Source: Lineus longissimus
Taxonomy: Eukaryota; Nemertea; Pilidiophora; Heteronemertea; Lineidae
Assembly (NCBI RefSeq): GCF_910592395.1
Contig: NC_088318.1
Coordinates: 11,346,349-11,410,348, forward strand
DNA length: 64,000 nucleotides
Reading direction: 5' to 3'
Positions 21,749-64,000 of this stretch are shown piece after piece. The position numbers and the translations under genes were made by a program. The notes beneath the pieces are model-generated. The model saw only the letters and a program-made list of their open reading frames with translations. It did no database searches and was not told the origin of the DNA. The stretch's first letter is position 1, and each line of letters starts with the position of its first letter.

Positions 21749-22050
21749 AACGTCCAAGTAATCCCTCAGTCTGGTATTTTGCGGTGTCTCCTCTCGGACG
21801 TGACAGACAGGGTGAGACCGTCCTAAGGTTGTGACTGTCTCTTGGTCGTAATGACTATTACAGAACAGCCTTCCTGTTGAGACAATTGAAGGGGGCCATT
21901 ATAATAACACGTCCAGGTAATCTCTCATTATGTCATTTTGCGGTGTCTCTTCTAGGTTGTGACAGACAGGGTGAGACCGTCCTAAGGTTGTCTCTTGGTA
22001 GTGACTATTCCAGACCAGCCTACTTATTTGTTCAAACATTTAGAGTAGGC
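21749..22050. repeat. Direct repeat, two copies offset by 158 bp
   Basis: ACGTCCAAGTAATCCCTCAG at 21751 corresponds to ACGTCCAGGTAATCTCTCAT at 21909. Both are followed by TTTTGCGGTGTCTC and then GACAGACAGGGTGAGACCGT. A tandem duplication with moderate divergence. Confidence 0.85.
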
Positions 22051-22860: not shown

Positions 22861-22980
22861 TGGGTGATATGAATAAAGACTAGCAAATGCTTTTATCTAA
22901 ATCTCCATGTACATTTACACTAGGCCTTCCTGTACAAAACCGGAGTAAAAGCATTTGCTAGTCTTTATTCATATCACCCA
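22861..22980. mobile_element. 120-bp MITE, copy 1
   Basis: 35-bp perfect terminal inverted repeats starting TGGGTGATATGAATAAAGAC. A second copy of exactly the same length is at 36762-36881. Internal CCATGTACATTTA and TGTACAAAA are shared by both copies. Confidence 0.93.
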
Positions 22981-26221: not shown

Positions 26222-28269
26222 TGCCCAACCCACGTTGGAACATTGGCATTTTGAAAGGAGTTTCAGTGTTCGTCGAACGCGATGCCTCGACGAATTTTGC
26301 TGCACGACGTGGAACTTCTTCGTGGGCACTGGTTCCACCATTGCATTCAAGTCATCATCTCCTTAGCAGGCGCACAATTCTAGATTATGGAGTTGATCTT
26401 ACCACACGGTGCATGATTGGCTGGGATGATGAGGAAGAAAATTCAACGTTCAACACAATGCAATATAAACATTTTGCTACACACTTGCCCAAATAGCACT
26501 GGATTACTGTGATGTATAAGAATTGACCAGGCGAACGGATATGGGTTCCATTAGAGTTCGCGGCAAGATTTCAGGTGATACCAGTTTGGCTCCGCATCAG
26601 GGTTCAGATAAAAATGATTGAAGTAAGCCTGAAACTGCATAGAGCATTTGCAAATGACGTCAACGGCTTTGTGTTCAATGCGTAGCACGCTCGTAGAGAG
26701 CCTATAGCATCAATCAAGTCATTTTCATTTATCCTTTGGCTTTGGAAAATAACTGACCAGTATCGAAAGCTATAGTCGCACATTTATATATTCAACGACC
26801 AACTCCAAATTACACTTCACCTGAAGGGACTGTTAATTTTCACATTTTGCCTAACCTTGGTTGTCTCATCTCGATCGAATTCACCAGTATGCATTAGTAT
26901 ACTGGTCTTTTGTGATATAATAGGGTGATAGGACATGTTGCATCTCGTGTGATAGAGTACTCATTTCATGCACTGACTTCGGGTTTGTGGCTCGTGGTTC
27001 ACAGCGTGCAGATGCTACGAGACCAGCAGGTTGGATAAAGTGCAATTCATTTTCTGTTTTGCGTGATGTGTCTCTGATAAAACGTTTGTTTGAATAATGA
27101 AATAAAGGAGTTTTAACACTGTGACAGTAGAAACAAAAGATGTTTGTGGTCTGTCATTTTGTAATTTCGCCAGCCAGCATATAGAGTCGGCAGTTGTTAG
27201 AACGTTAGCCCTGAAAGCATTCTGGACTTCCGGCAGAGGTACTTCCCAGTCGTCGCCTCTGATAAACATACCCCACGTTGTCTGAAGAATGAGCTGTGTG
27301 TCAAAACATTGAGCCGACAATTATTGTACAGGGTGTCTAGTTTTCCATACACGTGCCCTTCCGTTTGCTCAATTGATGTCGACAGTGAAATGTGGAACGT
27401 CTCGAAAATGCTGAGAGGCTGGATGTTCGGCCGGGACAGAGGGACACCATTTCCCATCCCGATATTAGGTTGTTTCACCCGGACGTCAAGTTAAAATATT
27501 GCGAGACGGCGTATGTTGAAAATCCCTGGCATGCCTGGTATTGGAGAATCATCATCCACAGTGGTCAGGGGTCAAGTGTTGTGAAGACGGGACTGTCTTT
27601 TGGGTTTTCCTTGTTTTTTTACCTCTCGATGTGAGAGGATGGCGAGAGGGTAAACGGGTTTGTCGTGTTTACCTGTCTTTTCCATTGACTAAATTAACGA
27701 AATTTGTCATCATAATATCATATTACATTATTATTATGTGAGATATGTTATTCATTTAATTTGATTTACATTATGAATATGAATTTTGATTGCTTACCGG
27801 GACATGATATGTGAAAAAATACTAATGATTATTTACATCTGCAATGTATAGTCAACAAATACACTCTGCTTCACAAATCTAATGAGAAATGCGTTAGTCG
27901 TTCACGAATGTACATGTAATTCTCTCGCAACAAAATGTTGAACAACCTTAATGACAGATGAACTGACTTACAGACTGCTCTTCATTGTATACTTATGGGA
28001 CAAGGTAAACATTGATGGATTTAGTAACTTTTTTTCGCAATTTTTTTCTGTTTACGAAAAACGCTTAATTAAACGCACGCGAATATCTTCGCACTAAGCT
28101 CTGTGTATAGACGAACCAACATTGTATAGAAGTCTATGGTGTGGCATTACGCGCCCCGAAATAAAACAGCAGGTTGTCAGCTCTTTTACTGATGTTATTT
28201 CCTCTCGATGTAAGCACGTATTTCTGCCGCTAAACCGTACCTTCATCTATCATACACATGGGCGGTTTT
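26222..28269. other. 3' UTR of CRAL-TRIO A and intergenic DNA between convergent genes A and B
   Basis: No further exon recognised. The A transcript probably ends near 27125 (AATAAA at 27101). The remainder up to the B stop codon at 28270 is AT-rich and featureless to me. Confidence 0.55.
27101..27106 (+). promoter_or_regulatory. Candidate poly(A) signal of CRAL-TRIO A
   Basis: AATAAA about 880 nt downstream of the stop codon at 26221. Confidence 0.4.
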
Positions 28270-42064: not shown

Positions 42065-42128
42065 CTGTTGACTGTGCTTTAAGAGAGACTGGCGCCATGC
42101 CTAGTCTCTCTTAAAGCACAGTCAACAG
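42065..42128. repeat. Perfect 26-bp stem hairpin with 12-nt loop
   Basis: The left arm 42065-42090 begins CTGTTGACTGTGCTTTAAGA and the right arm 42103-42128 is its exact reverse complement; the loop is GGCGCCATGCCT. ACACCAA occurs on both sides (42054-42060 and 42129-42135). It could be a very small MITE or a folded RNA. Confidence 0.9.
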
Positions 42129-52489: not shown

Positions 52490-55400
52490 TCAAATCTTGG
52501 GGACGTCAAAATGCGTTTCATTGACATCATCTCGATGTGTCTTGGTGCAGCTCCTTGCCACTGACTCGAACAACCTGCAATCAGACGTCAGAAAGATTTA
52601 GTTTCAAGGCATTATGAACACACCAGACGCTTGGAAAACGTTAATTTAGCACTAAGATTTCAAATGTCCCTGGGGAGGATCCTCACACCTTCCAAGTTCC
52701 TGGATCCGTCACTGATGAAGGTGCTCATTCTCTTCATTTAGTATGTTATCAAACTTTCATCATATTCTGCCATAAAGTGGGAAATGTTTGCGACACTAAA
52801 AGGTGATAATTTTCAATTGGTGTTGCGACATTTCACGGTATCAGTCCAAATTTTATAGTTATGCTTTCGAGTTGAAAATGTCACACGTTTTAGGTTTCCA
52901 TAAATTTTCGTCTCAAAGTCAAATTGCTGACATTCCCATGTCTACAGTATAAAGTTACTACCCACTAAAAACCTCAAACCACACTAGCAAAACCGAGAGA
53001 TCAACCTCCTGCTCAAGCAACATGCTTCCTAATAGCTTGTCTGTTGTCACAACCACCCACACATGAAAGAAGCTCTTCAAGTAATCAGCATGGCAGATGT
53101 AGAGCCTTCCCGCAGACAGTCAACTATGCCAAAGCACAAAACATGCAATCCCGAGGAGTGGTGCACCCCCTTAGAGGAATCGAAACACTATCCCATGTAG
53201 TAGACCAACAAGGAGGCTTCTGTGGACTGAGAGATGCCTCCGTTCTGCATGAAGGCCTCCCCCATCTGTCCACCCTGCCAACCAACTCAAGTATTTACTG
53301 TAGAGCATGAATAAAGAGACCAACTAGTGGAATGTTAGTTTCTCAGATCAGATTTTTTCAGTTTTCATTTGCTTTGCTTCACTGAGACAATTGGCGTTGT
53401 GGTCACCAATAGACACAATCACGATAATATCTCGTGTAATGGTTGGCATAAGACCTTGGGCATATTTATACCAATAGGGGATTAATAATCGTCCAAATGG
53501 CACCGTCTCGTAATCACTTCCTCGCAGTAGATACTACACAGAAATGCTGGTAACTCAAACCACCCAAAGTGCGCTCAAAATAACATTTGATCGGAAATGA
53601 AATGTTAATTAAAACAGAACAGTCGAGTGGAATTAAAGGTAGTCTACACAGCTTCTTATCACAAGACACCAATACCAAGATTCTCACTGTGGTCTTTAGA
53701 CGCAAGCAAGGAATTTTATCTGATATTAGGTAATTCGGGGTAAAGAGAGCTCGGGGCTCAAATTATCAGATGCTCACTTTACCCAACCCTTGTGTCCAGT
53801 CATTGAATACAGTTAGATGTGAGATGACCTTTGGGTTAGGGGTTTTTTTTGTCAGTAGGCTTTGCATGTGAATGCACCTAAGGATGAAGAAATATGCCAG
53901 ACTCATAAACGAAATGTTTTCATACATAAATCAGTATTGGAAGTGCATTGATAAGAAGCTGTGCGACTTCAAAATGTGTTACCATGGTTATTGTGTTAGC
54001 TTGAAGAAAAAAACAGAAAGAGGAGGGAATCTGTCTCGGAAGACCCTCTACCAGTCTGGGAAGACCCTACACCAAGAAGGAACCAGCGCCCCCAAGCGGA
54101 TCATGTGGGGAGTCGACATATATGGAGGTACAGAGAAACAGCAAATGAAGGCGTATCGAAAAACTGCAACACGCCAGATTTACCGATGTCAAGCGCGTAG
54201 GTGGTCAACCAGAAGGAGGAGTACTAGAGTAATCAGTTACAGCTTGTTAACCCTCTACACTTGACAAATTCACAGCAGGCCAAACCAGGGCATTGTAGTT
54301 TTTTGATACACCCTATATAGAATGACATATGATCTGTATTTACTTTATGACTAAGCTCGAGATTCCATTTCCATTTTGCCTGCGATTTCACGTGTGGCCC
54401 CGAGACAGATTCTAGAAATGAAAGCAGAACCTCTCAGTAGAGACATGCGACAACGATATACAGGTAGTCACTAGACAGTCATGGTCTTCACTAGACAGTG
54501 ATAGTTTTGAGGACGGAGGCGATTTTTCTCACAGATTCTTGGTGACAAGTTTCATTGAAAAAGCATCTTCATTTCCCTCATTGCCTGTTAACTGGCTGAA
54601 GTTTTAGTAATCACCATAGTACACCCCACAGGTGTCCATTTAACTAAGAAATGGTCATATGGAGTTATGCTTTAGAGCACTGCTGATCTCGCCCTCCCCT
54701 ACTACTTTTGTGAGAAAAAATGCTCTCCGTCAATTATAGCAACAGAAACAGACTTAAAATGTTCCCCCAGTGAGGAAAACCTCTCCATCAAGGGAATCAT
54801 GGCAGTGAGAAATGCTGCCCTACAGGGAGAAACATCCAAACAATAAAGGTTGGAATGTTCTACAACAGTGTGGATGTCCTTGATAGAGAGGTGTCCTAAA
54901 GAGGGCATCCGTAGGATTCAACTGCACATGATCTCCTCGAAAGGACAAACGATAAACCGTCATTGCAAATAAATAGTCTCGAACACGCTACTGACAAACT
55001 AATTATGACATCAAGACATGCTGCACAAAATTCAACTGAAGAGACTAGTTTCAGGTGAGCAGACGTCAGAGAATTACTTCAACGAACGAAATACGGCCAC
55101 AAACTTAACTAAAAGTAGTTAACAATATCGATAATTGAAAAAACAATTGGAAAGAAAGCTAGTTCATACGTACGTTTCAATTTCTGGGGCGCAATGAACG
55201 AACTCATGATTCCAGAATCGGAACTGTGGGTTCTTGATGAGCTCAATGAAGGTGATTAACAGGCCCCATGGGTGGGGTCGGTTCACTATCAGCCGCTCTA
55301 GTAACACTCTGGAAAAGAAGGTCAAATGTCAAGGTCAGGCAAAATCATAAATTATGGCGGGAAAGAAAGGGTATTTGCATTAACGTAACCAATATTTACA

Positions 55401-58400
55401 AAATCCGCCCAAATTTAGGCAAGAGATAGATGCTGTTATTTGCAACAGTGCTTGGAGTACAAGTATCAATTGAATTGCAGTCAATTACTTCACCCGGTTA
55501 GATATATCGATGGAGGTGACAGGTCTGATGAAATCATTGCATACCTAGTGATCTGTTCCTGTATTGCCTCGGTGTTTGCCTCCGCGAACAGATACAGCAG
55601 GGTACAGCTGAAGTAGTGCGTATGGCTGTTCGGGTACCGCAGCTGGTTGGCGATGGCATTCAAGAATAAGTAGCGGCCTAAAAGAAAGAGGAGAGGGGAA
55701 TGAAAATAATGATACATGATCACATTGGTCAAAGCTCTTTTGGGACTATTATCATCCTGGTTCCCACAGAACACTTGCGGGGTACAAAGCGCTCACTGGG
55801 CTAGAAGCTCCCCCATTGGCTTAATCAAGAGACAGGAGTTATCACTAACAGCAGAGGTCATTATGTTCATGGGATTCAACCTTTGACTGAAGAAATATTG
55901 ACAAACCTTCCGAGTCAAGATCAACTGCCAAGTTCTGGAAGATATCCATATGTGACGAGTGAGCTATCGTCGTCATGCTCGGAGTCAGCGACTTCTGCTG
56001 GATGTAGGCGATAGCTTGTGTGCCCACATACAGCACCAGGGCGTTGATCAGCTGGATGTTGTATCGGTTACCAGGCTCGCTCCCCACTTGGAGGTTGCTG
56101 CGCAGATCTGACAAGAATGTGACTGGGGAGCGTGTCTTCAGGTAGGAATCGAGATCCTGGAATGGAAGAGCAGCATTGTTAAGGAGATGAAGATGAAAGT
56201 CCAACTCTCCAGTGAAACTCTCATGACTTTTAGAACAGATAGCAATCTGACGACGTACCTTCTTGAATGTAGGCGGTTGAATCATGTTGGTGAAATTCGT
56301 CAAGATCCTCGGCGCATGTGTGATCTCATTCAACATGTCGACTTTGAGGTTGGGTGTGAACGGATCGGGCAGCCGCATGTTGCGTGGGAAAGCACTCAAG
56401 ATCAGGTTACGCACTTGAATACAGTTGGGTGGAATCGCGTCGCAGAACGCGTAGTGATAATCACAGAGGAATTCTGGGAAGTCGTGTAGCAGCACCAAAA
56501 GGACTCGCAGCGTACCCTGAAATGTTGAATCAAGAATTAGATATGTTTATGAACACATCAGTTCTAACAGATTCCATCAAGTGAATTAAGGAAAAGGCAC
56601 TGTGACCAAATGCCTACGAGGCACAGCAACTGAACACCTGACTGGGGGTCCTGCAGTGGTCAAGGCAGGTAATGGGAATGGAAGGTAACAAAAGGGGTCC
56701 CAAAAGTTCACAAATGCAAAGATTTCTTCGAAGTGTTTATAGTGTGTTTCCAACTTGCTTCAAAATGCATTTAGAAATCTGCTCAGAACCCATATCTATA
56801 GTCATACGAATTTAGACCGTCCTAATGAAAGTTTTCATCATAGCAGATAACACATCAAAACCCAATCCAGCACATCCATTCAAATGGACCTTCGTCATCA
56901 GGTCACCTCTCTATTCTAACGACTCACCCTGTAGAGTAACTGTGTCGGCTTGGTCAGGTCGGCGTTCCTCAAGAATGGGGCCAAGAACTTGAACAAGTCT
57001 ATCAGAAGTTGAGCATACATGCCCCAACCCTGTAAAAGAGAATGTGTATCAGGATAAAGACTTCATTCAAACATAAGAGATAACATCCATACAGCTCGCT
57101 GCCAGCTTTCAGGAAGAGTCTGAAGACCCACCTTTTCAAATCATTTTATAATATGTACTAATACCTTTTACGTAACGTTTTTAAGTAATGTATCTAGGCC
57201 TATTTATTTTTATCTCTGCGAGGCGCCGCGATATATACATGAGCGGCGCCATACAAATATTGTTTTATTATTTATTATTATTATTATGTAGCAGAGTCCC
57301 AGTTGTAATTGTATTTGTATTGGAACCAGTTCTACCATCGGGTGGCTATTACATGCAGCTCAGTTGATCTGCTCAGTGAACTAAATCAGTCATGGTTATT
57401 CAGACCGTCCTAGTTAATTTATTTCATCACTGCAGAGAAATGCACATCCAACATCGAACTGGAGCTTAAATATATCCTTGCTGGGGTGAAGCAGAGCCAA
57501 CGACTGACAATGGATATTTTGTTGTTGTCTGACTGTGATGTTTTACACTTACCCTCTGTGCCGGAGTGATTGCCAACATACGTCCAATGAATACTCGGTG
57601 AGACACCAACTCGAGCCAGGCGTAGGAGAAACCTGGTGCCTTTGCTGGTCTCAAGATATGAAGGGTATTGCTGCAAAGTGAAAACAAGTTACTTTAAGAT
57701 GACGACAAATGCTTTTACAAGGGACCCTCAATGAAAGTATTAACTATTAAGTCAGATTTCAAAACCAATGATTCTTGTGTAGATTAATCATCTTACACCT
57801 TGTGTGAAAATCATTTTGGCAACCACAATTAATATCTGCTCAGTAAACTAAATCAGTCATGGTGTTTCAGACCGTCCTAGTTAATAATTATCATCACTGC
57901 AGAAAACTTTTGTGAAATTTAGAAGCCACTGGTCCACCTCCAGAAAATAATAATGGAAGTTGTGGCTGTGTCAGGTATTCTACTTACCAAAATGCAGTCA
58001 GAATCTGGAAATTGATGCTGTCCAAGACCAACTCTGGCGCGTTTAGTTCAATGAAGAGCATGATGAATATCCTATGGTAAGGCAACTGCTGGAACTCGGT
58101 GTTCCTCACTTCATGATCCTGCAGGAGGACGCCCGCCACAATACCAAGCACCTGGAGAGGACAGAATAAACACATTACACCACCTCTCTATAAACAACAA
58201 TACGTTTATCGTACTGGTAATCTGGGTGAGGAAATCTTGGAAGAAATCTGCTCAGAACTGTTCATCAGTCACGGTTATCAGACCGTCCTAGTTAAAGTTA
58301 TCATCACAGCAGATAAAAGTGAGCTGTTATTCCCAAGGGACAAAAATATGACAAAATACACAGGAGTAGGCCCACTTTACTTACAATTGCCGCCGCTCGA

Positions 58401-61400
58401 CCCACTTTATTGAGAAGGTTGATCTTCGTGACCGGGTTGGCTGCGTCGCCGGAATGTTTCACCAGGAGAGCGATTAGACGCACAAAGGCATCCAGAGTGT
58501 GGAAACATTTGGCGCGGATCAGCGTGGCGCTGTGTGTCTGCTCGCCCAAGGCACGATAGCACAGGTCGACGCACATCTCCGTGCAGAGGCGGAAGAAACG
58601 TGCGATAAGGTCGTCGGACTTGAGGATGCCTTGCTGGTGCATCTGAAGCACGAGGAAAGAGTGAGAACCAGAGGTGAACGATAACATGGCTGGATTACGA
58701 ACTGGCCAAGTCACATCTGTTTACAATTTATACATTTTCAAAACTTGTTTATAAATCTGCTCAGAACCCATATCTGTAGTCATGCGAATTTAGATCATCC
58801 TAGTGAAAGGTTTTCATCACAGCAGATGGCACACAATTATATCCTTGTACTGTCTATGGAAGAGACAACTCGGTCATCCCAACATGGTCCTCTATGATTT
58901 AAACTATATTAGACTTCTTTTTCATTCAGTATCTGTCAAAAATAATTCCGATGTCTTACCTGGCCGACGAAAGCGGAGAAAGCCTTAGTGCTGTCTCTCC
59001 CAGCAGCAGGAGAGTGGTACATGTTGACCCACTCCCTTAGCAGGAACTCTGTCTTCTCATGCAGGCCTGGTGGATCATCGAACTCGCGCGCCTGGGAGAT
59101 GCCCGAGTGTAACGTCGGGCCACCAGGGGCTCGATCGAGGAGACCACCATCGTTATGCTGTCTGATTGTCTCGATGAGACCAGTCAGTCTGAAATCAAAT
59201 TGCCGAAACTGCTATCATATCATTATGAATGATCAAAGTGACACTATTATAAAGCGCTTGAATTTTTCATAACACTTGATATTGCTCTTGCGCCTGACAT
59301 TCCTTGCCAGCTCGGGGGTTCGAATCAATGATGCAGAATATCTTACCCGTCAGGTGCTTGTCTGGAATGAGCGGCAATGCGAGCCAGCGTCTCAATCGTG
59401 TTGTACAAGTCTGCCTCGTTAATCTGGGTGTTGTGTTTCTCATCGATGCAGAATCTCTGGACGAGCTGCATGGCGAACGCGACGGCCATGTAGTTCAATC
59501 CATTGTCCATCGACTGGAAACAAAATACGGGAACATGATTATATCAAGAGACAAAGGACATGATTCCTTGAACAGCCAACTGAAGTGTTCACATAGTGTT
59601 TCATTTTGAACCCATCTGCTCAGAACCCATATCTGTAGTCATGTGAATTGAGACCATCTTAGAGTAAGTTTTCATCACAGCAGATACCCTATCGATACCC
59701 CCACAAAGTCTACAATTGTCATGTCAAATAGGATTTTTTCTTGGTAGATTACTCTTTGTATATTGGCTCACATTAGCACCAGTTAGCATATGATTCAAAA
59801 TCTTACCTGTGCAAAATGAACATCATACTGTTGCATGTTGACAAGGTGACTACGGATCAAGACATCCACAGCCTCCACGTTATACTTGAAGTCTTCGCGA
59901 CACTCGATCAGACATCGCGTCACTTGCTTGTTGGTCCACTGCGGTCCGTACGCTCGCTGGTCTTGGAGGCCTCGCAGCACCAGGAGGTGGCAGTCGCGGT
60001 ATCGGATCATTGCCTCAGGATCCGAGGCTGGCGTCAGCGAGGAGATGCCATCTAGTAGTCCTTCTACAGCCTTGAAACCATCGAAATAAATACACATGTA
60101 ATGCTCAGCAAGATTAATGTCACAAAAGTCTCCCAAAGGCAAGACTATGTTGGGTGTGGGTGAAGTATCAGTTTTACTTTTCTACTGTAAAGAGGCTACT
60201 CCAATGACACAATGACTATCTGAATGATCCGATCACACCACTCACCTTCTGTAGCAGCGCAATTGCTGTGACAATCTCCCTCGAGTTCCTTGCCAGGAGG
60301 ACCGCCTCCAGCAGACTAGCAAGAGACTGCAGGAGTGGAGACTGCTGCTGGGATATGGCGTACTGTGACAGCAGGTACTGCTCAATATCGTGAGCTATCT
60401 TGTCGTAGATTTGTGTGATCTCATCAGTGGAGAATGACTAAGAGAAGAGAGGAGAAAAGACACGGTCAAAAGGTGCACTGTTGCGAAACTAAACTGGGCA
60501 AAAAATTTCACAACAAAGTTTGCTACATGTACTGTAACAGTGACAGACGTTTTCATTCTTTATCTAATCTGCTCAGAGCCTATATCAGTCATGAATATTC
60601 AGACCGTCCTAGTTAAAGTTTCATCACAGCAGAATTGTCGCACAAATAAACTGATATCTTGCAAGTCTCTCCGTTACCGTGGTTACTCACCTGAGGAGCC
60701 TGTGGCTGTTGAGGCTGCTGTTGCGGTGGCAACTGTTTGAAGAATGCCGGATGCTGCGCATCTGATGATGAGGCGCCACCTGTTGGCAAGAAGCCGGGAA
60801 TGTTGCGGCCGAACTCTTCATATACAGCGAGCTGCTGTGGGGTAACGCCGCCAACCTTCAGTCTGATCTGCTCAGGCATCCTCTCGGCCTGGTACGTCAA
60901 CACAACAGGATCACAATATCGTCTGCCTTCATTTCTCGCATGTTTACGCAGCTCGAACTCCTGGAGGAGTGGAATATGAAAGAGATTAGCGGACACATGA
61001 ACAGGCATCAGGTGGCCTAACTTCTCATCAATCGCCTAATCTGCTCAGAGCCTATATCAGTCATGAGAATTCAGACCGTCCTAGTTAAGGTTTCATCACA
61101 GCAGTACAATCGCACATACACTGATTGAATCAAATCGATATTGTGAGAACTCATCAGGCACTACTCTTTTCCTCCAGCTTGTCGACTGAAGCCGCCATTA
61201 TGCCTTGGTCGAATGTTCCTCTCAACTTACTGTGGCGAGTCTCTTGTCCATCTCCGGCAGTGCCTTCTCCACTGCGGTCTTCTGGATGAAGGCACAGGCC
61301 AGTTCTGTGTTATCCGTGGCCAACACCTGGCTTGCCTGCTCAATCATCTCCTTCTGGGGCGGGGTGGCATTCTGCTGTGAAAGACAAGTCAGAAATGAAA

Positions 61401-64000
61401 ATCCAAAACTACCTGTATGTCTTACTTCTAAGATGTCGTACAAGGCGCTGCTGTTGTCTAGATTACACACTCGACAGCCCTTTCTCAACAGCTACTGAGC
61501 CAAGATCCATTTAAATATACGGGTGTATGCAATCTGCTCCTTATGAACCTTTGCGAATATAGACAAACATGTGTCGACCCTGACCTCACAATTCAACCAA
61601 AACAGATGTGATGCCAAACCAACACAAAACAAACACCAGTCATCAATTTAGCCAACCAACACGACAACGTCACATGCAGGCACAGGAAGGGACATTGTTC
61701 TGAATTTTTTCAGAAATGAAAAATTTGTTCCATTTCTAAAAGTTACCAGCTCACAGTGCAGCAGAAACATGGGAAACAATACAGTGCTTTTCGAGGCAAG
61801 TTGCAAGTAAATTTGATGACGAAACATTTCGAAGGAAGGATTTTCCTTGCACTTGATTTTTAGGTGCCAACGGAGAAATATACTGGGCAGACACCATTGG
61901 TTACACTTACACTTTCACCTACCCTAAAAGTCTGCAAGAAAGCAGTCTTTAGATTGGTTGTTATGCTAATGAGCAATGGCTCCCGACATGTGATCAAAGC
62001 CATGCCGGCGGTCATGTTGCGGACCATGTGGTGGGCAGCCATTCTCATACGGCCCTCTTCGGGGTCCAGGGCGAAATCCTTAAAGAGAGAGACATACATA
62101 TTCAGGTATCACACATTGGAATCTCAATTAGTGAACAACTCTGCCAAAAGGTTAACCTTTTCTAATCAGGACATGGACTTCGGTTTCAAAGTTCTCATTG
62201 ACTCAAATAGACCTCAGTTATCCAGACACTTCACTGTCAAGCCCAGCATTATTCTGTCCCAACTTCAGTGTGAGCAACAATGCAACTGATATTGCAACCA
62301 TCAACTACCTAAAGACCTGAGTACAAACCTTTTTGACAATCTGCTCACAGGTGGTCAGAGCGATTTTGATCGATCTCTCCACAACTGGTGGGAGGAGGTC
62401 TTGGACCGAACGCTCAATTGCTGGGCGGACATATTGCTTCAACTGTGGGTTGGTCTGGAATAGTGCGATCTGAAAAGCAAAATGTCAAAGGTCAAGGTTA
62501 AAAGATCTTTGTGTGATTCTAGAAGTGACAGAGAGCTGCATTGAAACAGTATATAATTGCTCAGAACTTCTGATCAGTCATGAAAATTCAGACCGTCCTA
62601 GTTAATGTTTTCATCAAAGCATAACATAGTAGAAGCAAGCAGACGCTCTGAAATATTGCTACAAATTGGCAGATAACTAGTCCAATGAACAGACGAATGT
62701 GAATAGACCAATTGGCTATTTCGCCGCTGACCTTGCAACTTTACTGCGCAACTTACTTGTTCGTTTATCACAATATGAGGAACGAGCCCGGTAAACGATG
62801 ACGTATTGATGTCCATGAACGTGAACTGAGGCTGTGGCGGTGCCGTCGCTGATGCGGATGTTGTTGTCGTTGCCACGCCAGAGCTCGAGACCACCGTGGA
62901 GACAGTCGGGGTCGTGATTGCCGTCATCATTCCGCCGGCGGAGAGGTTCATGTTACCAGCGATGTTGCCGGCCATTCCCGATGCGACAAGGGACGCGTTC
63001 AGTCCCGCTGAGAAGCTGTTGGTTCCCGACGGAGGCATCAGACCTGGAGGAATACATTTGATGAAGTGAAAACTCTCCTACCAGTGATATTTTTTCTTCA
63101 TCGTCAAAATGAATCTGCTCAGAGCCAAAATCAGTCATGAAAAGTCAGACCGTCCTAGTTAAAGTTTCATCACAGCAGAAATTTGGTTTTGTATATCAAT
63201 TCCAATCAACCTAGAGTAACAGTAAACTTGCCACCAAGAGCTAAGAAGAAAGGACAAAACCTCACATGTATGTAAGGACTCAGTGTGACAGCAGTATAGG
63301 TTTCTAGATGAGATTATTTAGCAGTTTGTGCTAAAGACTTACAACCAATCCAGATGGCAAACTGTATGGAACAAGGAGAAACTGCAACTGACTAATGCCT
63401 GTTAGAGGCAAACACAAACCGTCTAGAGCAACCTCATGTAGGAAGAAAATTATCAAAGAACCAATCTATGATTACCTGACGGTGGTAGGAGCGATGACTG
63501 CTGAGCACCGGCTGCTGTCGCTGCAGCAGCTGCGGCCGCCACAAGGGCAGCTGTCTGTGCTGCTGCCTGGTTGTCCTCCTGGAGAGTTGGCGTGGGCTCT
63601 TTGATCTTGCCTCGCGAGGAGAGCTGGTACTCTAACGTCGCTAGCTTGTCACGATTGCGTAGATAGCGTGGATTCTTTAGCGACTACAAGACAGGGAAAG
63701 TACGCGAATGACATTAATACAAGAGATAACTGGTTCGTTTGATAAATAGCAAGTAAAATGTCTGAATCAAGTCATCACAGGCAACGCCAAAATAAAAGCC
63801 TGTTTATTATCGAGTCAGCTGAAAGTTAAATGTAAACAGGTCAACCAGATTTAGCTCATGAGACACTCTTTCTTTCATGTATTCTTGACAAAATATCAGT
63901 CTTAACCTGTTACTACTCTTAGCCAACTCACAGTGGTAAAAGGATCAACAACAACAACATGCATAATCAATATTTCTCACACTCACATTGATGTCTAAGT
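52490..64000 (-). CDS. CNOT1: CNOT1, CCR4-NOT scaffold subunit, C-terminal half (runs off right edge)
   Basis: Twenty exons in transcript order: >64000-63987, 63683-63476, 63043-62757, 62469-62329, 62078-61923, 61374-61231, 60960-60691, 60437-60246, 60070-59807, 59513-59347, 59188-58960, 58642-58406, 58151-57988, 57670-57553, 57029-56928, 56516-56259, 56156-55907, 55677-55545, 55308-55174 and 52574-52490. All junctions keep frame, for ~1183 residues. Recognised stretches are [20 protein letters not shown] (CNOT9-binding region), [20 protein letters not shown] (connector region), [20 protein letters not shown], and in the Not1 homology domain [20 protein letters not shown] and [20 protein letters not shown]. 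The protein holds the CCR4-NOT deadenylase together in the cytoplasm and docks NOT2/NOT3 and CNOT9. A Gln/Pro-rich linker is at about 60700-60780 and an Ala-rich one at about 63500-63560. Ten introns carry snoRNA-like elements. Confidence 0.96.
56777..56848 (-). ncRNA. Intronic C/D box snoRNA candidate, copy 10 (type 2)
   Basis: Sense to CNOT1. Stem ATCTGCT/AGCAGAT, box C ATGATGA, box D CTGA; the D' position is degenerate (CTAA) and the guide reads CATTAGGACGGT. It shares AGATATGGGTT before box D with copies 5 and 6. 260 nt from the 3' splice site. Confidence 0.7.
57367..57436 (-). ncRNA. Intronic C/D box snoRNA candidate, copy 9 (type 1)
   Basis: Box C GTGATGA, D' CTGA preceded by AACTAGGACGGT, C'-like ATGACTGA, box D CTGA. 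Stem TCTGCA/GCAGA is weaker than in other copies. The segment before D (TTTAGTTC) is almost the same as in copy 8. Confidence 0.78.
57834..57903 (-). ncRNA. Intronic C/D box snoRNA candidate, copy 8 (type 1)
   Basis: Box C GTGATGA, guide AACTAGGACGGT directly before D' CTGA, ATGACTGA as C', box D CTGA. Nearest relative is copy 9 in the neighbouring intron. Confidence 0.78.
58246..58314 (-). ncRNA. Intronic C/D box snoRNA candidate, copy 7 (type 1)
   Basis: Stem ATCTGCT/AGCAGAT, box C GTGATGA, guide AACTAGGACGGT, D' CTGA, C' GTGACTGA, box D CTGA. 94 nt from the 3' splice site at 58151. Confidence 0.82.
58754..58826 (-). ncRNA. Intronic C/D box snoRNA candidate, copy 6 (type 2)
   Basis: Stem ATCTGCT/AGCAGAT, box C GTGATGA, box D CTGA. 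The D' position reads CTAA and the old guide is CACTAGGATGAT. CTACAGATATGGGTT precedes box D, identical to copy 5. Confidence 0.75.
59614..59685 (-). ncRNA. Intronic C/D box snoRNA candidate, copy 5 (type 2)
   Basis: Stem ATCTGCT/AGCAGAT, box C GTGATGA, box D CTGA. The D' position is CTCA and the 5' guide has drifted (TCTAAGATGGT). CTACAGATATGGGTT before box D is shared with copy 6. 100 nt from the 3' splice site. Confidence 0.75.
60567..60633 (-). ncRNA. Intronic C/D box snoRNA candidate, copy 4 (type 1)
   Basis: Stem TCTGCT/AGCAGA, box C GTGATGA, AACTAGGACGGT then D' CTGA, ATGACTGA, box D CTGA. The segment before D, TATAGGCT, is identical to copy 3. 129 nt from the 3' splice site. Confidence 0.84.
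61039..61105 (-). ncRNA. Intronic C/D box snoRNA candidate, copy 3 (type 1)
   Basis: Stem CTGCT/AGCAG, box C GTGATGA, AACTAGGACGGT then D' CTGA, ATGACTGA, box D CTGA. 78 nt from the 3' splice site at 60960, the spacing typical of intronic C/D snoRNAs. Confidence 0.84.
61531..61575 (-). pseudogene. Possible decayed copy of the intronic snoRNA element
   Basis: On the plus strand AATCTGCTCC and then GCGAATATAGAC line up with the left half of the type 2 element (AATCTGCTCAG...GCGAATTTAGAC). Neither box C nor a complete stem remains. Weak similarity, noted because it sits in a CNOT1 intron lacking an intact copy. Confidence 0.3.
62556..62625 (-). ncRNA. Intronic C/D box snoRNA candidate, copy 2 (type 1)
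   Basis: Box C TTGATGA, guide AACTAGGACGGT, D' CTGA, ATGACTGA, box D CTGA; the stem is shorter (TGCT/AGCA). The segment before D is TCAGAAGTT, unlike other copies. 86 nt from the 3' splice site. Confidence 0.78.
63113..63180 (-). ncRNA. Intronic C/D box snoRNA candidate, copy 1 (type 1)
   Basis: Stem TCTGCT/AGCAGA, box C GTGATGA, guide AACTAGGACGGT, D' CTGA, ATGACTGA, box D CTGA. 69 nt from the 3' splice site at 63043. Confidence 0.84.

What the first reader, a model, noticed from the sequence alone, without database searches (positions are those of the whole stretch)
56777..63180. Ten C/D-box-snoRNA-like elements, one per intron, across the CNOT1 gene
Ten CNOT1 introns each contain one ~70-nt element in sense orientation. 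Each has a CTGC(T/A) terminal stem, box C (GTGATGA or close), a D' site, a C'-like ATGACT and box D CTGA followed by GCAG. Seven lie 69-129 nt from the downstream 3' splice site, a spacing usual for intronic C/D snoRNAs. Constant orientation, one copy per intron and conserved boxes argue against an ordinary transposon. I know vertebrate CNOT1 as a host of H/ACA snoRNAs, but not as host of a ten-copy C/D family, so this may be an undescribed snoRNA cluster.
Basis: partly seen in the sequence, partly recalled or inferred. Interest (0 to 1): 0.92.

Follow-up and report, generated by a model that had tools for sequence, protein, structure and literature searches.

The report
Worm gene packed with snoRNA copies
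In a ribbon worm, many introns of the CNOT1 gene each carry one small RNA gene of the kind that guides chemical marking of ribosomal RNA, and copies of one ancestral guide appear to have lost different halves or switched ribosomal targets.

Summary
Ten 66-71 nt elements lie on the minus strand, each in its own CNOT1 intron, sense to the gene, with box C, box D and a short terminal stem. The genome is that of the nemertean Lineus longissimus. The array is larger than reported: with introns beyond the window, 18 C/D elements occupy 18 of 42 mapped CNOT1 introns, plus one remnant. They form two families: A (11 copies; two more in TCP1 introns) and B (7 copies). A strict C/D scan of 84 kb gave 17 hits in CNOT1 introns and one elsewhere, all on the sense strand; about 0.17 per strand are expected. 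Seven CNOT1 and two TCP1 copies of A share a D' guide pairing over 11-12 nt with 18S helix 24 at the plant Um1013 site, identical to the guide of plant snoR20a. Three copies (class II) have a decayed D' box but a conserved D guide for 28S next to human Am2787; class I shows the reverse. Family B splits into guides for 18S and for 28S. These are very probably functional intronic snoRNA genes; expression, methylation and the rRNA of this species itself are untested.

The parts
52490..64000 (-). Host gene CNOT1, 3' part (continues beyond the window end)
   Evidence: Spliced mapping of the 99% identical L. longissimus CNOT1 protein P0001
63114..63179 (-). Family A class I C/D element, intron 63475..63044
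   Evidence: D' guide plus box at 63145-63158
62556..62622 (-). Family A class I C/D element, weakest box C and stem, intron 62756..62470
   Evidence: missed by the strict box scan; D' guide plus box at 62588-62601
61040..61105 (-). Family A class I C/D element, intron 61230..60961
   Evidence: D' guide plus box at 61071-61084
60568..60633 (-). Family A class I C/D element, intron 60690..60438
   Evidence: D' guide plus box at 60599-60612
59615..59684 (-). Family A class II C/D element (decayed D' site, conserved D guide), intron 59806..59514
58756..58826 (-). Family A class II C/D element, intron 58959..58643
58247..58313 (-). Family A class I C/D element, intron 58384..58152
   Evidence: D' guide plus box at 58278-58291
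57835..57903 (-). Family A class I C/D element, intron 57987..57671
   Evidence: D' guide plus box at 57867-57880
57368..57436 (-). Family A class I C/D element, intron 57552..57030
   Evidence: D' guide plus box at 57400-57413
56778..56847 (-). Family A class II C/D element, intron 56927..56517
   Evidence: D' box CUAA, D' guide still pairs with 18S through a G-U pair

Best explanation
The ten elements are box C/D snoRNA genes of one paralogous family carried one per intron by CNOT1 in Lineus longissimus. Each would be released from the spliced intron by debranching and exonuclease trimming, protected by the C/D proteins bound at the stem and boxes, and would guide fibrillarin to rRNA (established pathway; inferred here). 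Class I copies (7 in CNOT1, 2 in TCP1) guide, from D', methylation of the U in 18S ACCGUCCUAGUU (helix 24; plant Um1013, yeast position 1009). Class II copies (3) have lost the standard D' box but kept a D guide for 28S UACCCAUAUC; the +5 rule points to the C just before the A equivalent to human Am2787. The two classes arose by copying between introns followed by loss of opposite guides. Shown: anatomy, position, complementarity to rRNA of other eukaryotes, reciprocal conservation. Inferred: transcription, processing, methylation, and that the ancestor had both guides.
For: Boxes and sense intronic position in all ten, with one weak stem and box C; 17 strict C/D hits in CNOT1 introns, 0 plus-strand hits in 84 kb, 0.17 expected per strand. 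D' guide AACUAGGACGGU next to box CUGA: 12 of 12 pairs with 18S as printed in primer 83, -19.6 kcal/mol; the consensus of plant snoR20a holds the same letters AACUAGGACGGUCUGA at its box D. Register: the U lies 35 nt after yeast A974/Arabidopsis A978 in 9 of the 9 eukaryotic rDNA contigs (of 11 fetched) that hold the region, and in a printed Kudoa 18S; Arabidopsis 978+35 = Um1013. Class II D guide: 9 pairs with 28S as printed in a 28S primer, -13.7 kcal/mol. Reciprocity: class I (9 copies) mean difference 0.019 per site in the D' guide against 0.641 in the D guide; class II (3 copies) 0.278 against 0.056; 1 of 220 label sets scores as high (the 13th copy, 64229, was left out). Class II is the one starred clade of the tree, 99/98. 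With elements masked, the 18 introns share no blastn match at E<=0.01, so the elements are conserved while their flanks mostly are not.
Against: No RNA data. The 18S of this species was not found in the assembly and its 28S was not sought there, so targets rest on other eukaryotes; 8 of 9 contigs with the region have G where the guide needs C, and only L027, Kudoa and the parasite 18S primers have ACCGUCCUAG. No Rfam family reaches its gathering score in the region. Covariation in the terminal stem is weak: 1 pair with a two-sided change, score reached by 111 of 500 shuffles, percentage paired by 60 of 500. The class II D' guide at 56778 still pairs well with 18S (-16.9), so loss there is mainly of the D' box. 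Non-cognate duplexes reach -10.3 (class II D guide with 18S). The reciprocity test follows classes defined after seeing the sequences, and the three class II copies share descent. The class II site is one base from the known human site. Seven of ten inner branches of the tree are unresolved.
Confidence: 0.88

Rival explanations
1. Only a few copies are functional; the rest are decaying paralogues kept by chance, and the array has no role beyond redundancy.
For: Copy 62556 has a weak box C and stem; class II D' boxes are degenerate; a truncated family B remnant exists in another CNOT1 intron.
Against: The 12-nt 18S D' guide is identical in 8 of 9 class I copies and differs at the outermost base in the ninth, while the D guide of the same copies varies; flanks have lost detectable similarity.
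Confidence: 0.2
2. A mobile element (snoRNA-derived retroposon or other short interspersed element) that inserted into introns.
For: Multiple similar copies without similar flanks; copies in a second gene on another contig. In 4 of 18 elements the longest repeat shared by the two flanks is 6-7 nt, at or above the 95% level (6) of random sites; one of 18 (63114) has an A-run within 30 nt after its end.
Against: The two answered genome-wide searches found copies only in CNOT1 and TCP1, all sense (11 places; 8, control 0). Flank repeats average 4.7 nt against 4.4 at 2000 random intron sites; 17 of 18 have no A-run.
Confidence: 0.04
3. Intronic structural or splicing elements unrelated to C/D guides.
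For: One per intron, seven of ten 70-130 nt from the 3' splice site.
Against: Box C, box D, terminal stem and an rRNA-matching guide identical to that of plant snoR20a next to its box; 24 of 42 introns have no such element.
Confidence: 0.02

Closest known systems
Plant snoR20a (Rfam RF01193)
   Same: Guide plus box AACUAGGACGGUCUGA is identical letter for letter; same 18S target by the +5 rule
   Different: In snoR20a it is the guide before box D at the 3' end; here it is the D' guide. The covariance match (30 bits, cut-off 42) runs into intron sequence outside the element, so it is not the same gene family by that test. That RF01193 is a plant family is recalled
[not shown]
   Same: D' guide for the same 18S stretch, similar layout (35.2 bits)
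   Different: Below the cut-off of 48; two extra bases before the D' box move the predicted site by two nucleotides
SNORD31 (RF00089) and SNORD29 (RF00070)
   Same: Same box arrangement and size (best 32.4 and 30.8 bits)
   Different: Below the cut-offs of 40 and 48; the SNORD31 guides differ (alignment); SNORD29 guides were not compared
Human SNORD99 (28S Am2787)
   Same: Class II D guide covers the same 28S stretch
   Different: The +5 rule gives the neighbouring C; SNORD99 is not in the Rfam listing at E<=1 for 56700-60000
snoU30 (RF01283) and human SNORD30, for family B
   Same: Subtype B2 guide AUCUCGUUAAU equals the snoU30 consensus; subtype B1 guide pairs with 18S ACGAACGAGAC, the SNORD30 site as I recall it
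   Different: 22.8 bits, cut-off 45; the D' box is AUGA, not CUGA; the SNORD30 comparison, and that RF01283 is a plant family, come from no call
Multi-copy intronic snoRNA paralogues in chicken (cis-duplication)
   Same: Copies in neighbouring introns of one host by intragenic duplication (PMC2653536, passages)
   Different: Chicken CNOT1 carries three H/ACA snoRNAs (ACA50, ACA46, ACA14), here 18 C/D elements; TCP1 there carries ACA20 and ACA29, here two family A copies

Membership tests
Box C/D snoRNA (class) | Box C RUGAUGA near the 5' end | tested here: met
   9 of 10 in the window exact, 62556 with one mismatch; 17 of 18 in CNOT1 exact
Box C/D snoRNA (class) | Box D CUGA near the 3' end | tested here: met
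   10 of 10
Box C/D snoRNA (class) | Terminal stem joining the ends | tested here: met
   93.3% of 60 cells pair in 12 sequences; slid versions 18-55%. Covariation itself is weak, and 62556 has only 3 contiguous pairs
Box C/D snoRNA (class) | Guide of about 10 nt directly before D or D' complementary to rRNA | tested here: met
   18S and 28S duplexes; targets from print and from rDNA contigs, not from this species
Box C/D snoRNA (class) | Intronic, sense, one per intron (usual, not obligatory) | tested here: met
   10 of 10 in the window, 18 of 18 in the gene
Box C/D snoRNA (class) | Stable RNA bound by fibrillarin; methylation at the target | not testable with these tools
   No RNA data
snoR20a (RF01193) | Rfam gathering score 42 | tested here: not met
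   30.0 bits, match runs outside the element
snoZ118 (RF00142) | Rfam gathering score 48 | tested here: not met
   Best 35.2 bits
SNORD31 (RF00089) | Rfam gathering score 40 | tested here: not met
   Best 32.4 bits
SNORD99 (human 28S Am2787) | Guides the same nucleotide | tested here: inconclusive
   Same stretch, predicted site one base 5'
snoRNA retroposon or transposon | Dispersed copies, target-site duplications, A-tail | tested here: not met
   the genome searches are lower bounds, and 4 of 18 elements have 6-7 nt flank repeats

The most novel reading that the evidence does not exclude
CNOT1 in this ribbon worm is a snoRNA nursery caught in the act: guide RNAs copied from intron to intron, then split by complementary loss (class I keeps the 18S guide, class II the 28S guide) and retargeted between the two rRNAs (family B: one heptamer core that fits both 18S and 28S, with the flanking bases changed to fit one or the other). 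In addition, an animal would methylate 18S helix 24 at a site that the table and text passages I read list only for plants, with a guide identical to that of snoR20a.
Probability: 0.45. Interest if true: 0.72.

Novelty: new member of a known kind. Interest (0 to 1): 0.6.

Why it matters
How guide snoRNAs gain and exchange targets is, to my knowledge, mostly inferred from comparisons between distant species. Here one gene seems to hold both stages: copies with one shared guide, copies that kept the other guide, and copies whose guide fits 28S instead of 18S. Eighteen C/D elements in one protein-coding gene is far beyond the three snoRNAs listed for chicken CNOT1. The predicted 18S methylation is in helix 24, at the decoding centre, and is described as plant-specific in the review passages read (PMC11542601), so one RiboMethSeq run on this worm would test it.

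Tried and rejected
U24/SNORD24 for class II: I first matched the class II D guide to yeast Cm1437 (U24) because the spacing of Cm, Am, Gm fitted the stretch UACCCAUAUCCGCAGCAG. From recall of U24's own target (another part of 28S) I dropped this. The plant sites Cm1847, Cm1850 and Gm1855 place the stretch near human Am2787 instead: position 10 of the primer is the only register in it that fits.

Echinoderm origin: suggested by the mir-2002 match; wrong, the CNOT1 protein hit is Lineus longissimus and the 391 Mb size fits (PMC8593623, abstract in listing).

Own rRNA: 18S not found in the assembly; 28S not sought there. Viral contigs held none for the 18S pattern or the 28S pattern. Eukaryotic 18S contigs labelled as bacterial were used instead; the 28S stretches TACCCATATC and ATTAACGAGAT are in 0 of these 11 (a loose form of the first matches once, in L025), so the 28S targets rest on printed primers.

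Class III (64229-64305): its D' guide fits none of the four rRNA pieces tried (best -3.7); its D guide was not tried.

Terminal-stem covariation: too little variation to prove a helix.

Genome search for class II, family B and SNORD24: not completed (see below), so copies in other genes may exist.

Full report
Where this is. The window is C11:11346349-11410348 of a 391,118,348-base genome in 30 contigs. A query joined from exon translations hit a Lineus longissimus CCR4-NOT subunit 1 protein at 99% identity over 85% of the query in one local alignment; the next row with a species name (Owenia fusiformis) is at 73%. The published genome of that bootlace worm spans 391 Mb (PMC8593623, abstract in the search listing). 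Mapping this 2493-aa protein onto the window plus 20 kb beyond it gave 42 coding introns on the minus strand. For 34 of them the junctions were set by script (32) or by eye (2); the other 8 ends come from exon matches and may be off by a few bases.

The ten elements. They are as described: 66-71 nt, all on the minus strand, each alone in its intron, all in the sense of CNOT1. Consensus: (U)CUGC(U/A)-RUGAUGA-...-D'-...-AUGACU-...-CUGA-GCAG(A). Distances to the 3' splice site are 70-130 nt in seven and 164, 261 and 338 in three. The least canonical is 62556-62622.

More than chance. A mechanical scan for box C, box D and a stem of at least 4 bp over 84 kb gave 18 hits on the minus strand and none on the plus strand; 17 of the 18 lie in CNOT1 introns, one at 26263 outside. 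Thirty second-order Markov copies gave a mean of 0.17. With one mismatch allowed in box C the counts are 24 and 3 (the 24 include repeated hits on one element), against 2.7 expected. This scan revealed a second family. A covariance model of family A finds 12 strong matches (75.7 bits or more; the 12 it was built from), a divergent 13th at L011:226-309 (44.6 bits; 64226-64309 in window numbering) and, at 25.1 bits, what proved to be a family B copy. A sequence model of family B finds the 7 copies it was built from and a truncated eighth at L011:1145-1186 with no box D nearby. In all, 18 elements sit in 18 of 42 introns: 11 of family A, 7 of family B.

Elsewhere in the genome. A DNA search with one class I copy found 11 places: 9 of the 10 window copies (56778 was not among them) and 2 on C20. 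A guide pattern found 8 places: 6 in CNOT1 and the same 2, with none for the reversed control pattern. The C20 host is TCP1: the joined exons match TIGR02340 at 4.9e-153 (510.7 bits; the best other CCT subunit 172.1), below the full-length cut-off of 800.2 because the query is partial. Both copies are sense and intronic, 71 and 82 nt after the donor and 322 and 263 nt before the acceptor by eye; the second acceptor is uncertain because the site is repeated upstream. These searches are lower bounds; those with class II and family B queries did not complete.

What class I would guide. Seven CNOT1 copies have AACUAGGACGGU directly before D' CUGA; the two TCP1 copies have it too, one with a different first base. 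It pairs 12 of 12 with 18S GATACCGTCCTAGTT, as printed in an 18S primer (PMC8448621 and PMC7232091, passages) and in a Kudoa 18S (PMC7552615, passage), at -19.6 kcal/mol. The fifth base from the box pairs with the U of ACCGU. Register: primer TAReukREV3 covers yeast 964-981 (PMC9543310, passage), so the second A of AAGAAC is A974; the U is 35 bases on in 9 of the 9 rDNA contigs, of 11 fetched, that hold the region, and in Kudoa. Arabidopsis Am978 is paired with yeast Am974 in a published table, so the U is Um1013, listed there with no human or yeast counterpart and called plant-specific in the text (PMC11542601, passages). Independently, the Rfam consensus of snoR20a holds AACUAGGACGGUCUGA at its 3' box, identical to guide plus box here. 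Against this: only 1 of the 9 contigs has the CC the guide needs; the others have CG. The target in this species was not seen.

What class II would guide. Copies 56778, 58756 and 59615 have D' boxes CUAA, CUAA and CUCA and drifting D' guides (-16.9, -13.7 and -9.2 kcal/mol with 18S), but share the D guide (C/U)AGAUAUGGGUU. It makes 9 pairs with 28S UACCCAUAUCC, printed as a 28S primer in a myxozoan study and for pig (PMC9402732 and PMC4882671, passages), at -13.7 kcal/mol; its best fit to the 18S helix 24 piece, with an internal loop, is -10.3. The +5 base is the third C. Plant sites Cm1847, Cm1850 and Gm1855 fit that primer in one register only; with the table's pairing of Cm1860 with human Cm2804 and recalled sequence between, the C is human 2786, beside Am2787 of SNORD99 (PMC5597630, passage).

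Reciprocal guides. Class I (9 copies): 0.019 differences per site in the D' guide, 0.641 in the D guide. Class II (3 copies): 0.278 and 0.056. Of 220 ways to choose three of the twelve copies, only the true one scores as high; copy 64229, with both guides changed, was left out. The classes were defined after looking, and class II is a clade (99/98, the only starred branch of ten), so this describes a pattern and does not prove selection on independent events. Class I D segments are also 1-3 nt shorter from C' to D. Several still resemble the 28S guide (GAUAUAGGCU against GAUAUGGGUU), which suggests an ancestor with both guides; that is inference.

Family B. Four copies (B1) carry GUCUCGUUCGU before AUGA and fit 18S ACGAACGAGAC, a stretch present in 8 of 11 rDNA contigs, at -18.5; this is the SNORD30/Am1383 site as I recall it. 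Three (B2) carry UAUCUCGUUAAU and fit 28S AUUAACGAGAU, read from a reverse primer printed in PMC9402732, at -12.6; each fits the other rRNA worse (-9.7 and -9.0). The B2 guide equals that in the snoU30 consensus. The core UCUCGUU pairs with both rRNAs; the bases around it decide.

Origin of the copies. With elements masked, no two of the 18 introns match at E<=0.01, though the flanks of 61040 and 60568 look alike by eye. The longest repeats shared by the two flanks average 4.7 nt against 4.4 at random intron sites; 4 of 18 reach 6 or 7 nt, the random 95% level being 6; 1 of 18 has an A-run within 30 nt. I read this as old intron-to-intron copying with flanks since diverged, rather than insertion of a mobile element.

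What is known. Chicken CNOT1 hosts ACA50, ACA46 and ACA14, and TCP1 hosts ACA20 and ACA29, all H/ACA (PMC2653536, passages). The same two host genes carry snoRNAs of another class in this worm. Searches for CNOT1 with snoRNA and intron (39 papers, 20 listed), for the guide sequence (none) and for two of snoRNA, Lineus longissimus and nemertean (53 papers, 15 listed; none of those 15 holds the word snoRNA, the other 38 were not seen) showed no description of this array; the library holds open-access papers only.

Verdict. Real, and very probably a working C/D snoRNA array: a new member of a known kind, unusual in size, in host and in how its guides have diverged.

Noticed in passing
L011 and L012 (window numbering 67923-74004): Second C/D family (B) of seven copies in seven upstream CNOT1 introns, with guides of two kinds fitting 18S or 28S.
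   Followed up: yes
L011:1145-1186, minus strand: Truncated family B copy with a changed guide and no box D nearby, in the sense of CNOT1: a decayed copy.
   Followed up: partly
L010:66-133 and 714-781: Two family A copies in introns of TCP1 on another contig.
   Followed up: yes
L009:9300-9826 and L010:1179-1672: About 178-bp tandem repeats in TCP1 introns, and a 59-bp repeat around L010:860-1074 that repeats an apparent 3' splice site and exon start.
   Followed up: no
window 42067-42126 and 22874-22968: Strong hairpins with sub-threshold matches to mir-987 and mir-2002 models.
   Followed up: no
window 21800-22030, minus strand: Direct repeat of about 159 bp in which each copy holds TTAGGACGGTCTCA, near the family A guide, without box C; probably coincidence.
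   Followed up: partly
window 26263-26358, minus strand: The only strict C/D-like scan hit outside CNOT1; may be chance.
   Followed up: no
L021-L031: Eukaryotic 18S sequence inside assemblies labelled as bacterial species: 11 contigs hold the pattern; the two tested were confirmed as eukaryotic rRNA by Rfam.
   Followed up: partly
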